Positions 11,511 to 63,837 of a stretch of 64,000 bases of DNA are shown one piece after another. The stretch is taken from the NCBI GenBank assembly GCA_963669155.1, contig OZ022583.1, positions 2,247,730-2,311,729 of the forward strand, read 5' to 3'. The first letter of the stretch is position 1. The number at the start of each line of letters is the position of its first letter. Position numbers and translations under genes: made by a program. Below the pieces are notes generated by a model, which was not told the DNA's origin, searched no databases, and was given only the letters and a program-made list of their open reading frames with translations. The stretch is from Arbacia lixula. Its lineage: Eukaryota; Echinodermata; Echinoidea; Arbacioida; Arbaciidae.

Positions 11511-12318
11511 AAGAAAATCACGGACATAATAAGATAAGTTAATGATGTACATGTATTCAATGTATTTATGTCGACCGGTCGTTAGTTTGGAAAGGAGTTT
11601 GACCAATCATAAATTTTCTTTATGGTTATGGGTAAACCCTGCAGAATATACATAACTTGCTTGTACCCTACACACTCTCTTATTCATTACGTATTTCGAG
11701 CTTCTATAATCATTGTGCGTTGGGCACCGATTCACAGCCTGATGATAGAACCCGACTACCGCCCTCTCTCGATGACCTCGAAACCGACGTCATAGTTCTG
11801 TGACTTTGCTGATGGGTCAGATGAAAAGTGTAGGAAAACGACTCCAGAACAAAGTGGTATTGAAGGATCAATTCCTAACAAGTTGGTCTTGTCGTGAAGT
11901 GGGTTGTTTTACCGTAAGGCATACAAGTGATAACAACTTCCGTTGTCATTGTTGTATGACTACACGAGGGATCATAGGAAGATGTCATCTCAAAAGCATC
12001 TTAACCACTATCATTCCTATCATACCTCTCTAAATTTCGCCTTTATCATATCCATTGTACTTTAGATCGCTATTCAGTCCGAAGTTCACTGTTCTATCAT
12101 CTTGAATGCACATTGCTTTTAAACACTACTGCCATAATCATGCAAGCGTGAAAAGAACACGTGTCTTTAGAGAGGAAGATATACATCAACGTACCGTCTA
12201 TTTCGGATGAAAACGATTATGTACATGTATTGTACAAAAAAGTATTGCTAATCGTTAAATATTTACGACGGGTCCATACGTGTAATAGGAAGACAAAGAG
12301 CCATAGAAAGGATGGTCG

Positions 12319-12399
12319 TGAGCAGTCTAGTTGCCAATGGTCTTAAATTTATATATTGTCCATTTTAGAAACTTCTTGAAAGTTATTTGCCCTTAAATG
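12319..12399. mobile_element. Arm fragment of the TTAA palindromic MITE
   Basis: About 80 bp (from GAGCAGTCTAGTTGCCAATGG through GTTATTTGCCCTTAAATG) match the inner part of one arm of the complete copy at 63.5 kb. Terminal and central parts are absent, so this is an old fragment. Confidence 0.75.
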
Positions 12400-27054: not shown

Positions 27055-27285
27055 TGGGCGTGTAGTGATTAAAACACAAATCCTCAAAGTGTTCGGCCCG
27101 AACAGTTTGAGGATTTGTGAATTAATAACTTATTTCTCCAAATGTGGATAATTTGAGGGCAAATTACTTTCAACAAGTTTCTTAAATGGACAATACATGA
27201 ATTTAAGATAATTGTCAAGAAGATTGCTCATAATAATCTTTTTGAAGTTTTTTTTTGTCTTCTCAGTACAGTATACTCCTTTTAA
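27055..27285. mobile_element. Half copy of the TTAA palindromic MITE
   Basis: The central palindrome (CAAATCCTCAAAGTGTTCGG and its mirror) and the whole right arm match the complete copy at 63.5 kb, ending CAGTATACTCCT followed by TTAA at 27282-27285. The left arm is missing or replaced beyond about 27055. Confidence 0.85.
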
Positions 27286-35110: not shown

Positions 35111-35864
35111 CAACTTTGACCAACTTTGATTCAGCTTGACCAGGAAAGGAGGGTAGTGCGTATGTACGTACCGGAGATGGAGATTGGGATTATGTACCCC
35201 CCATAATTATCTTATTACAATATTAATACTGGTTATGATTACATTAAAAGTAATTTAAGCTTTGTTTTATTTGGATAAAGATAACTACCTTAATATAATA
35301 AACATAACTATCATTTGGTTAACGACATTTTTTATTAGCTGATAATATCCTTCAATGATATCAACGAAATAGCTAATCTGAAATCAATTACGGTCAAGGA
35401 TTTGCGACTGACAGTAAGTCATCAGAAAACAAGTGTATATTCCTTTGAGTGGGAGTCAAATTTTCTTCTGAGAAGTGTATCGAGCTAGATCAGGCGGGTT
35501 GTAAATAACAATCGGATGTGAACCTGCGCGTTGTCTGCCGCACACTTGATCTGAGAATGTTGCCCTTGAGTTTGACATGACGTCATGTAAATCAATTCTA
35601 GCTTAATGGCCGCAAAACACCCCCTATTTCATAAATTAATTCCATGTAATAGACCCGCATTTTTTTTTACTCCTAATACAAAGAGGTATCCTCATGGGCG
35701 GCCCAGCCCCCTTCTCGTAATTTAAGATAAGACGTCCCTTATCATTCGTTTAACCTTAACTGTGTAGTCTTTCGTTCAAGTCCTTATCAGTTTGTGATTC
35801 TTGCGATCTTATCGTTAGTATTGGCGATATGAAGTTTAAAATTGAATGGAGCAGAATAGAATAA

Positions 35865-36277
35865 TTTTATGTATTGGGTTAGGTACATAAAGATAATACA
35901 CAAGACACGAACAGAGAGCAAGAGTGACTTGTCTGCTTGATGTATAAACTACAAGTGTCTTTATTCTGGAATACTTTCGATTATATATACAGGGTATAAT
36001 ATTTCCATCATTAGTCATCATTGGTACTGGTTGGTACAAGGAGATGTGGGGTGAGAGAAGTAAGGGAGTGACCAGTGGCAGGATGCTGTGGTCAAGTGAA
36101 TACATAGATTGGAATGCGGGAATAAGAGGAGAACTGAGAGTTTGAGATAGAGCGAAGTGCAAAGTGAAAGTGTTACATGCAAGGCATGGTTGGAACTTAA
36201 AGGAGCATAACACAAATATACATGTAATATGGATGTGCAATATATCTCATAACAATCATGTAGTTCAATACACTACA
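35865..36277 (-). repeat. 3' LTR of the Gag-only retrotransposon
   Basis: This copy has the same length (413 bp) as the 5' LTR and appears base-for-base the same apart from a small cluster of changes at about 35877-35893, next to the element's left end. In sense it is preceded by a purine tract. It carries the same TATA-like sequence (35981-35990) and AATAAA (35960-35965, minus), and the left-flank target duplication AATAA is at 35860-35864. Confidence 0.92.
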
Positions 36278-36293
36278 TTTCCTCCCTCCCTAA
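36278..36293 (-). promoter_or_regulatory. Polypurine tract
   Basis: In sense this reads TTAGGGAGGGAGGAAA and directly abuts the TGTAGTG start of the 3' LTR, which is the expected place and composition for the plus-strand primer of an LTR retrotransposon. Confidence 0.8.
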
Positions 36294-36665
36294 ATAGTAC
36301 TTAATCTACTTCATCATAATCGCAATTTTAACTTTTACAATATCATTTTTAACATTCCAAAGCAATTCTTTCATGAAGCAATGTGAAACAGTAGTTATCT
36401 TAATTTGTTACAGCAAATCGTACATGCATGGCATTTAGATTTTGGAGCAATAACATAGCAGTCCATTAACTTTTATTGAGTCCAAAATAATTCAATTTGT
36501 TCTGTCCATGTAATGCAATTCCGGTTTTCCACTTTAATATTCTTTTAACAATATTTAGTGTACAAGGAATTAGGGTGATATTGAGTCACTGTTCACCTAT
36601 CATAAATCTTTCGTATCCAACGGGGGTCAATCATTTTAAAGCAATATAGCTACAATAGGGATGCC
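36294..36665 (-). other. 3' untranslated internal region of the LTR element
   Basis: About 370 bp of AT-rich sequence lie between the gag stop codon and the polypurine tract. No remnant of reverse transcriptase or integrase was recognised. In a complete element this space would be short or hold the end of pol. Confidence 0.5.
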
Positions 36666-38000
36666 CTAGCGTTTCGGTAGTTTCCGATCGCGAGTCAAGT
36701 AGGCTTCTCGAGGCACGCTAGATTTTCCTGGTTCGCGAGGTCGTTCAGCGCTCGGAACAGGTGGTGGTAATTTCGGAGGACCTTCAGCGGTAGCTGTGCA
36801 TGAGCTGGGCCCGTCGTCATCGTCCTGGATGTCGTTGTCATTTTCGATGTCGTTGTCATTTCCGATGTCGATGTCGTCGTCGACGTCGGGATTTTTCTGT
36901 GGATATGTCTCCACAACGATTTCACGCGCGCGATTGTCGTCATTTCGCCGTTTGTCTCTGTGGCCGTTTTCTTCCTCCCCTTCGCTATCAAATAAACGGT
37001 CTTTAGCTTTCTTGAAATGCCTTCCTTCTTGCCTCCCCTGTTGATCGTTGACGCGGGGAGCGATGTCGGAACTCTGGTTTCCGATATGGTTGTTCGAACA
37101 TGGTCGACTCGGATTGCTCCGCTGGTGGAGAGGCTCCCTAGCGGATGACGACTGGGTCAGCTGCCAATCCATCTTTAACTGGAAGAGTCGATACGTGCCG
37201 TTCTCTTCATCATCTCGATCGTCTGCAGCATGGCTCGCAGGATCATTCACACCAACAGCGTTCACTGCTTGCTGCGGCGCTTTGCTGTGATGTTTGCTAC
37301 GACACACCGTGGCGATGTGTCCTTTCTCCTTGCAGAAATGACATGTGCTGTCGTTGAATCTGCACATGTCTGGAGTGTGATTATATTTTCCACACCGAAA
37401 GCAGGGCTTCGGTTTCGTTTCTTGGCGCGGCTCGGTGGGAGACATTCTGTGTACTATCTCCCTTGTCGACTGCGCAGCTTGCAAGTCTCTCACATTGATG
37501 GCAGCTGTTTCAATGCTGGTAGCAATCTCGACTGCCGTCTGGAGATCAAGCTTTCTCTTGGCCAGTAGCCTTCTCTGGATACGGTCGTTGCGAACGCCGC
37601 AAACCAGACGATCACGGAGCATGGTGTCGAGTGTCGACCCAAAGTTGCAGAACTCTGCCAGTGATCGAAGCGATGCCATGAACTCGGAAATGGATTCCTC
37701 CTCCATCCGACATCGGCTATTAAACTTGCATCTCTGCACGATCTCACTTGGTATAGGGTTGTGATGCTTGTTCAGTGCCTGTACCAATTCTGCATACTTC
37801 ATATCTGCTGGCTTAACGGGAGCCACCAGATTCCGCACAAGCTTGTAGGAAGATGGACCAATAACTGTCAGCAAGGTAGCCTGCTTCTTTCCCTCAGAGT
37901 TGATGCCATTGGCTTTGAAGTATAGGTCTAGCCTCTCGATGTACTGCGACCACTCCTCCTTCCCCTCATGAAAATCAGTGATTTTTCCAATGAGAGCCAT
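36666..38000 (-). CDS. gag: Gag polyprotein of the LTR retrotransposon, 444 aa, intact
   Basis: Gag forms the cytoplasmic particle that packages element RNA. The frame is uninterrupted. The chosen ATG at 38000 begins MALIGKITDF, 42 nt after the LTR; the frame stays open into the LTR, but that extension would lie upstream of the primer site and is unlikely to be used. Residues 1-200 look like a retrotransposon matrix/capsid region. Two CCHC zinc knuckles follow at residues 200-213 (CFRCGKYNHTPDMC) and 220-233 (CHFCKEKGHIATVC), the usual nucleic-acid-binding pair. Residues 268-276 (GTYRLFQLK) resemble the segment that leads into protease in complete elements, but the protease DTG motif never appears. 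The tail is charged, with an imperfect D/N-rich repeat at about 372-395 and a Pro-rich, basic end. This suggests an internal deletion joined Gag to the far end of Pol while keeping one frame (inference). Confidence 0.9.
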   Translation of the reverse strand: MALIGKITDFHEGKEEWSQYIERLDLYFKANGINSEGKKQATLLTVIGPSSYKLVRNLVAPVKPADMKYAELVQALNKHHNPIPSEIVQRCKFNSRCRMEEESISEFMASLRSLAEFCNFGSTLDTMLRDRLVCGVRNDRIQRRLLAKRKLDLQTAVEIATSIETAAINVRDLQAAQSTREIVHRMSPTEPRQETKPKPCFRCGKYNHTPDMCRFNDSTCHFCKEKGHIATVCRSKHHSKAPQQAVNAVGVNDPASHAADDRDDEENGTYRLFQLKMDWQLTQSSSAREPLHQRSNPSRPCSNNHIGNQSSDIAPRVNDQQGRQEGRHFKKAKDRLFDSEGEEENGHRDKRRNDDNRAREIVVETYPQKNPDVDDDIDIGNDNDIENDNDIQDDDDGPSSCTATAEGPPKLPPPVPSAERPREPGKSSVPREAYLTRDRKLPKR

Positions 38001-38023
38001 GTTGTGTGTGAGATAGAAGTATC

Positions 38024-38041
38024 GAAGAATCCTCGTCGCCA
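38024..38041 (-). promoter_or_regulatory. Primer-binding-site-like sequence
   Basis: In sense this begins TGGCGACGAGG, one base after the LTR end. TGG is the expected complement of a tRNA CCA end. The priming tRNA could not be identified by eye. Confidence 0.65.
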
Positions 38042-38042
38042 G

Positions 38043-38455
38043 TTTTATGTATTGTGGCGAGGCACATAAGATAATACACAAGACACGAACAGAGAGCAAG
38101 AGTGACTTGTCTGCTTGATGTATAAACTACAAGTGTCTTTATTCTGGAATACTTTCGATTATATATACAGGGTATAATATTTCCATCATTAGTCATCATT
38201 GGTACTGGTTGGTACAAGGAGATGTGGGGTGAGAGAAGTAAGGGAGTGACCAGTGGCAGGATGCTGTGGTCAAGTGAATACATAGATTGGAATGCGGGAA
38301 TAAGAGGAGAACTGAGAGTTTGAGATAGAGCGAAGTGCAAAGTGAAAGTGTTACATGCAAGGCATGGTTGGAACTTAAAGGAGCATAACACAAATATACA
38401 TGTAATATGGATGTGCAATATATCTCATAACAATCATGTAGTTCAATACACTACA
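38043..38455 (-). repeat. 5' LTR of the Gag-only retrotransposon
   Basis: This 413-bp LTR starts in sense with TGTAGTG and ends with CATAAAA, abutting the primer-binding-site region. The 3' end does not show the usual CA. A TATA-like stretch (sense GTATATATAA, 38159-38168) and an AATAAA signal (38138-38143, minus) lie about 15 nt apart. The right flank carries AATAA, matching the left flank of the other LTR. Confidence 0.92.
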
Positions 38456-38460
38456 AATAA

Positions 38461-63465: not shown

Positions 63466-63837
63466 TTAAAGGGCATATACTGTACTGGGAAGGCAAAAAA
63501 GCCTTCAAAATGTAATTGTTAGCAATCTTCTTGCCAGTGGTCTTAAATTCATGTATTGTCTATTTCAGAAGCTCGCTGAAAGTTATTTGCCTCAAATGAT
63601 CTACATTTGGAGTAATGAGTGATTAAATCACCCATCCTCAAAATGTTCGGGCCGAACATTTTGAGGATTTAATCAATAATCATTAATTACTCCGTCTGTG
63701 GATCATTTGAGGGCAAATAATTTTAAGCAAGTTTCTAAAATAGACAATACATGAATTTAAGACCATTGGCAAGAAGATTGCTAACATTTACATTTTGAAG
63801 GCTTTTTTGCCTTCCCAGTACAGTATATGCCCTTTAA
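63466..63837. mobile_element. Complete palindromic MITE with TTAA target duplications
   Basis: A 364-bp body (63470-63833) is flanked by TTAA on both sides (63466-63469 and 63834-63837). The ends are perfect inverted repeats (AGGGCATATACTGTACTGG), and the arms pair along their whole length. At the centre are 17-bp perfect arms (ATCCTCAAAATGTTCGG) around a single G at 63651. TTAA duplication points to mobilisation by a piggyBac- or Kolobok-type transposase (inference). It has no coding capacity. Fragments of the same family occur at about 12319 and 27055. Confidence 0.92.

What the first reader, a model, noticed from the sequence alone, without database searches (positions are those of the whole stretch)
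35865..38455. Gag-only LTR retrotransposon with intact ORF and near-identical LTRs
The whole pol region is gone, yet a 444-codon Gag frame is open and the LTRs are almost identical, with a perfect target duplication. This resembles recently mobile Gag-only elements that parasitise an autonomous partner, or a candidate for capture as a host Gag gene.
Basis: partly seen in the sequence, partly recalled or inferred. Interest (0 to 1): 0.75.

Follow-up and report, generated by a model that had tools for sequence, protein, structure and literature searches.

The report
Gag-only retrotransposon family, mobilised in trans
A short jumping element in an animal genome has kept little more than its coat-protein gene, has spread to many places, and carries in its ends marks that suggest it was copied by the machinery of a complete relative.

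Summary
On the minus strand, 35865-38455 is a complete Ty3/gypsy-type element: two 413-bp LTRs, a 5-bp target duplication, PBS, PPT and one open 444-codon frame. It is not an isolated deletion: 13 places in the same 607-Mb genome match the whole 1,375-bp gag query, and 11 of 12 copies checked have 5-bp duplications.

Relatives were found. Seven copies, 99-100% alike in PR-RT, are full-length, with the same PBS and LTR ends. Three copies lack RT-RNase H in frame and share that deletion junction with the Gag-only class. "The whole pol is gone" needs correcting: the end of the frame derives from the integrase tail.

In 5 of 10 copies the LTRs are identical outside the last 30 columns, beside the PBS; four of these differ inside. 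In 5 of 13 copies the 3' LTR ends like the partners' and the 5' LTR differently, as expected if minus-strand DNA starts on a partner-type RNA and moves to the Gag-only RNA. Gag is under purifying selection.

Closest known: plant TR-GAG and wheat RLG_Quinta/RLG_Cereba. This is a new variant, in an animal (probably an echinoderm). Mobilisation in trans is inferred, not shown.

The parts
35860..35864 (.). 5-bp target site duplication, copy 1 (AATAA on the plus strand)
   Evidence: same length in 11 of 12 Gag-only copies, 4 of 4 F and 3 of 3 M elements checked
35865..36277 (-). 3' LTR, 413 bp
35865..35892 (-). U5-end tract of the 3' LTR, type A: 28 of 28 columns identical to the LTR of full-length copy C12
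36278..36290 (-). polypurine tract GGGAGGGAGGAAA directly upstream of the 3' LTR
   Evidence: near-identical sequence in partner C5
36278..36665 (-). 3' untranslated stretch between the stop codon and the 3' LTR
36666..38000 (-). open frame of 444 codons: capsid-like part, two zinc knuckles, remnant of an RT-deletion junction, integrase tail
36676..37088 (-). part of the frame that contains two stretches homologous to the C-terminal end of the partner's pol (gag nt 913-1030 and 1154-1325)
37096..37175 (-). 80-bp patch holding the RT-RNase H deletion junction shared with the M class (88.75% identical to M)
37290..37405 (-). two CCHC zinc knuckles (approximate limits)
38029..38041 (-). primer binding site TGGCGACGAGGAT; 12 of 13 nt fit the 3' end of a tRNA-Ser(GCT) gene, 13 of 13 a second tRNA-like copy
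38043..38455 (-). 5' LTR, 413 bp (TATATA at LTR nt 289, AATAAA at 313)
38043..38070 (-). U5-end tract of the 5' LTR, type B, not found in any F or M copy read
38456..38460 (.). 5-bp target site duplication, copy 2 (AATAA on the plus strand)

Best explanation
The window holds one member (class G) of a multi-copy, non-autonomous LTR retrotransposon family that encodes only Gag with an integrase-tail extension and is copied and integrated in trans by the enzymes of a small, young, autonomous Ty3/gypsy-type family (class F). An intermediate class (M: Gag-PR-integrase, RT-RNase H deleted in frame) shares the RT deletion with G. Shown by sequence: the three classes, their shared PBS, LTR termini, 5-bp duplications, shared junction, recent insertions, selection on the G frame, and mosaic LTR ends. 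Inferred: G and F or M RNAs are packaged together; minus-strand DNA of a G element often starts on an F- or M-type U5 (or on a G RNA that already carries it) and switches to the G template, leaving a 3' LTR end of partner type and a 5' LTR end of G type; F supplies RT, RNase H and integrase; G supplies Gag for its own particles and perhaps for F.
For: Copy number: 13 places match the whole gag query (46 candidates, 40 scored); LTR search: 40 scored of 247 candidates, 94-100% identical. TSDs: 11 of 12 G, 4 of 4 F, 3 of 3 M. Partner: 7 full-query PR-RT matches at 99-100%, 16 of 16 candidates scored; pieces of one F hold protease, RT, RNase H, H2C2 and rve domains; 4 of 4 F LTR pairs identical over 412 bp, M pairs 0, 0 and 3 differences. 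Shared junction in 3 of 3 M pieces and in the window copy. U5 end: type A in 9 of 9 F/M 5' ends and 7 of 7 F/M 3' ends read; G copies with both ends read: B/A 5, A/A 4, B/B 4, A/B 0 of 13. LTR-LTR differences in 10 copies: 24 columns in the last 30, 17 substitutions in the other ~384. Selection: pooled pN/pS 0.42 in 8 open copies, 0.24 in the capsid part; gap events that are multiples of three: 9 of 12 in the frame, 2 of 25 in the 3' UTR, Fisher p = 8e-5. U3 is 81-85% identical to F/M in 10 copies while R plus upstream U5 is 97-100%; the first 225 nt after the 5' LTR are 90-100% identical to M in 10 of 11 copies, and L011 is F-type there.
Against: No expression, particle or transposition data. 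B/A against A/B is 5 to 0, two-sided p = 0.0625, so direction alone is not proven. The p-value 2e-17 treats linked differences as independent. Four G copies are B/B, so the partner-type end is not required. In W, L010 and L016 the A donor could be another G RNA of type A. One copy (C5:19056831) has no target duplication and diverged LTRs. C3:12565862 showed no 5' LTR in the 481 nt read. Six of 10 copies lost a cysteine of zinc knuckle 1. M is 90-98% identical to F but G only 72-76% to either in the integrase tail, so the order F to M to G is not proven.
Confidence: 0.85

Rival explanations
1. Each short copy is an independent deletion of a full element, dead after insertion.
For: Deletion derivatives of LTR elements are common (recalled); fragments such as L030 and L033 exist.
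Against: The short copies read share the same order of parts and, where compared, the same frame, own target duplications in 11 of 12, and frame-preserving indels.
Confidence: 0.02
2. The frame is being kept as a host Gag gene (domestication).
For: Purifying selection on the capsid part.
Against: Selection is seen across a multi-copy, LTR-flanked, recently inserted set; no single conserved locus was found, and no other species was tested.
Confidence: 0.03
3. The differing U5 ends come from later events (mutation, gene conversion) or from selection on the integrase site, not from template switching during reverse transcription.
For: LTR ends are integrase binding sites (recalled); F and G are also identical over the first 25 nt of U3 in 10 of 11 copies.
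Against: In W, L010, L013 and L015 the other ~384 columns of the two LTRs are identical while 3-6 columns differ in the last 30; the A tract matches F/M exactly; the 3' end of C1:13168978 matches M copies C1 and C16 over the whole tract and beyond. Later conversion should not prefer this tract.
Confidence: 0.12
4. The enzymes come from another autonomous family, not F.
For: Four distant RT relatives (65-67% over about 360-430 bp) exist in the genome.
Against: F shares PBS, both LTR termini, PPT region, U5 end and gag with G, and its insertions are as recent. The LTRs of the distant relatives were not examined.
Confidence: 0.05

Closest known systems
RLG_Quinta with RLG_Cereba (wheat; PMC11302176, passages seen)
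   Same: Non-autonomous Ty3/gypsy-type element with an open GAG frame plus an extra domain, an autonomous partner with the same PBS and LTR termini, and signs of recombination.
   Different: Plant, centromere-specific; Quinta's extra domain is of unknown function, here the extra part is an integrase tail. Here a middle class shares the RT deletion, and the LTR ends carry per-insertion mosaics.
TR-GAG elements (named in plant papers, listings; original description recalled, not seen)
   Same: Short LTR elements that encode only Gag.
   Different: Here an animal; partner, intermediate and U5 mosaics identified. One listed paper with the phrase concerns a brown alga (PMC12477816, listing only).
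RLG_Sabrina and RLG_WHAM, semi-autonomous (wheat; PMC9744471, passages seen)
   Same: Keep GAG or GAG-protease while lacking RT and integrase.
   Different: The M class keeps protease and an altered integrase core, the G class neither.
Non-autonomous pararetroviruses with homogenised regulatory sequences (PMC5491270, abstract seen)
   Same: Partner and dependent elements share a regulatory region through region-specific recombination.
   Different: Different virus group and no integrase-dependent LTR ends.

Membership tests
Ty3/gypsy-type LTR retrotransposon (family as a whole) | Partner pol in the order protease, RT, RNase H, integrase | tested here: met
   Pfam on two separate pieces of F copy C12
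Ty3/gypsy-type LTR retrotransposon (family as a whole) | LTRs, PBS, PPT, short fixed-length target duplication | tested here: met
TR-GAG / Gag-only non-autonomous LTR element | LTR element with open gag and no RT or RNase H | tested here: met
TR-GAG / Gag-only non-autonomous LTR element | Multi-copy with shared structure | tested here: met
TR-GAG / Gag-only non-autonomous LTR element | Found in plants, where it was named | tested here: not met
   Host COX1 reads as an animal's by recall; so it is filed as works-like, not as a member of the plant set
Quinta/Cereba-like partner pair | Identical PBS and LTR termini in the autonomous partner | tested here: met
Quinta/Cereba-like partner pair | Centromere targeting | not tested
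   No centromere map was used
Mag clade of Ty3/gypsy | Placement in an RT tree | not tested
   Only recalled features (tRNA-Ser PBS, single gag-pol frame) point there
Domesticated Gag gene | Single conserved locus without LTR mobility | tested here: not met
   Many LTR-flanked copies with own duplications

The most novel reading that the evidence does not exclude
A three-tier cooperative system: the autonomous element F reads Gag and Pol in one frame and so would make them one to one; the Gag-only element G supplies the surplus Gag that particles need, and in return is copied from heterodimers in which minus-strand DNA routinely starts on F or M RNA and moves to G RNA. The integrase tail fused to G's Gag is kept for a function, such as joining the particle or guiding entry to the nucleus.
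Probability: 0.25. Interest if true: 0.8.

Novelty: new variant of a known kind. Interest (0 to 1): 0.62.

Why it matters
How a non-autonomous LTR element is copied by its partner is usually inferred from shared termini. Here individual insertions carry what look like birth marks at the LTR end, so co-packaging and the first steps of reverse transcription can be counted from genome sequence alone. The F, M and G set also shows reduction of a retroelement with its frame preserved, which makes the question of parasite or Gag-supplying mutualist testable.

Tried and rejected
Searches that found nothing: phage records and IMG/VR for Gag; Rfam and tRNA scans of the window. Pfam gives only weak matches for the Gag frame itself (zf-CCHC 0.006, below cut-off; Retrotrans_gag 0.026, below cut-off); its identity as Gag rests on its homology to the gag of F, which precedes protease and RT. 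A structure prediction of the capsid part was tried five times and never ran. The search with the 3' UTR did not complete. Rejected: independent deletions, assembly collapse, host-gene capture (see rivals). The top 40 LTR places hold no full-length partner: of the 22 not in scored pairs, 18 show an LTR only, 2 a two-LTR G structure (one truncated, L028), 2 a gag fragment; the partner was found through gag. A first split of frame and 3' UTR mis-set the stop in two copies and was redone. Literature: searches listed no Gag-only animal family by title, but several returned more papers than were listed, so absence from print is not claimed.

Full report
What is there. The element runs from 35865 to 38455 on the minus strand. 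Each LTR is 413 bp if taken as TGTAGTG...CATAAAA, which gives a perfect 5-bp target duplication (AATAA on the plus strand). The same choice of LTR end gives a 5-bp duplication in 11 of 12 Gag-only copies, 4 of 4 full-length and 3 of 3 intermediate copies checked; the exception is C5:19056831. PBS and PPT are in place. The frame has 444 codons.

The genome. The window lies in G000:C8 of a 607-Mb assembly with 590 contigs. The COX1 frame on contig C590 is open for 521 codons with TGA as Trp; the echinoderm code puts Asn at two positions that I recall as conserved. The host is therefore probably an echinoderm; no tool named it.

Class G, the Gag-only family. The LTR search gave 40 scored places of 247 candidates at 94-100% identity. 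The gag search gave 13 places over the whole query (40 of 46 candidates scored). Eight of 10 copies read in full have an open frame; L012 has a 1-nt gap and L013 a 58-nt insertion. Substitutions between the two LTRs outside the last 30 columns number 0 in 5 of 10 copies and 2-6 in the others, so several insertions are recent.

Selection. Among the 8 open copies pooled pN/pS is 0.42: 0.24 in the capsid part, 0.63 around the zinc knuckles, 0.53 in the C-terminal part. Gap events in the frame are multiples of three in 9 of 12 cases, in the 3' UTR in 2 of 25 (Fisher p = 8e-5). In 8 of 10 copies the frame is kept as far as the integrase tail. Indel combinations show all four gametes (the 6-nt and 12-nt events in W, L009, L010, L011), so G copies also recombine with each other.

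Class F, the partner. Seven places match the whole PR-RT query at 99-100%, one matches part of it, and three are M copies (16 of 16 candidates scored). Pieces of copy C12 contain protease, RT, RNase H, H2C2 and integrase core, and its gag frame is in phase with the protease-RT piece without a stop in the pieces read. Four of 4 F LTR pairs are identical over 412 bp.

Class M. Three copies keep gag, protease and integrase core but lack RT, RNase H and the integrase zinc finger; the junction is the same in 3 of 3 and leaves the frame open. From the aligned coordinates the deletion is about 1,806 bp, a multiple of three. All 3 carry NNG where F copy C12 has DNG, at what I recall as the second catalytic aspartate of integrase. 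The G frame contains the same junction within an 80-bp patch that is 88.75% identical to M, against 74.7% to F over 75 bp. Elsewhere G is 72-75% identical to M and 71-76% to F in the tail, and M is 90-98% identical to F. So G and M share the deletion by descent or exchange; the order of events is not settled.

Mosaic LTR ends. F and M carry one U5 end, type A, in 9 of 9 5' ends and 7 of 7 3' ends read. G copies carry type A or their own variable type B. Of 13 G copies with both ends read, 5 are B/A (5'/3'), 4 A/A, 4 B/B and none A/B; L028 among the A/A is truncated. In 10 copies the two LTRs differ in 24 columns within the last 30 and at 17 sites in the other ~384. W, L010, L013 and L015 differ only inside that tract; L014 does not differ; in L016 two further differences lie some 45 nt from the end; L009, L011 and L019 differ only outside it, and L012 at 3 sites outside and 1 inside. 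The 3' end of C1:13168978 matches M copies C1 and C16 in the tract and beyond, and its U3 is 94% F/M-like against 81-85% in the other 10 copies.

Reading. In retroviral reverse transcription (recalled) both LTRs take U5 from one strong-stop DNA. A 3' LTR of partner type beside a 5' LTR of own type fits strong-stop DNA begun on a partner-type RNA, an early switch to the G RNA, and minus-strand synthesis that later runs through the PBS into the still intact U5 of the G RNA. This is inference. The R-U5 and first 225 nt after the LTR of G are also close to M (or to F in L011) while U3 and later gag are not, as expected if the 5' end of the RNA is exchanged repeatedly; shared constraint on packaging and promoter signals could add to this.

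Compared with the known. Wheat RLG_Quinta/RLG_Cereba is the closest described pair (PMC11302176, passages); its authors propose that Quinta supplies GAG. Sabrina and WHAM (PMC9744471, passages) are semi-autonomous. TR-GAG is a named plant class (listings only). Homogenisation of a regulatory region between partner and dependent elements was described for pararetroviruses (PMC5491270, abstract). The kind is known; the animal host, the RT-less middle class with a shared junction, the integrase-tail fusion and the per-insertion U5 mosaics make it a new variant.

Verdict. Supported as a replicating Gag-only family with an identified candidate partner. Mobilisation in trans, co-packaging and the strand-switch model rest on sequence alone.

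Noticed in passing
L028 (C17:1504501-1505604) and C20:19537380-19538481: Two gag matches end at nt 1108 and 1105; in L028 the sequence then enters the LTR at nt 239. Possibly a further shortened subtype.
   Followed up: no
C7:15717714-15718796 and C7:16018760-16019829: Two gag matches on one contig both begin at nt 266, as if they share a 5' deletion or a duplication.
   Followed up: no
Gag-only copies L009, L010, L013, L014, L015, L019: Six of 10 copies share a 6-nt deletion that removes a cysteine of zinc knuckle 1.
   Followed up: partly
window 63466-63591 and 63712-63837, relatives at 12281-12399 and 27064-27254: Inverted repeat with 94% complementary 126-nt arms and related copies in the window, like a miniature inverted-repeat element.
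   Followed up: no
G000 C5:19056831-19058152: A Gag-only copy without target duplication and with strongly different LTRs, perhaps a recombinant between elements.
   Followed up: no
C19:11044107, C4:4676763, C7:17953936, C2:16612830: Distant RT relatives of F at 65-67% identity.
   Followed up: no
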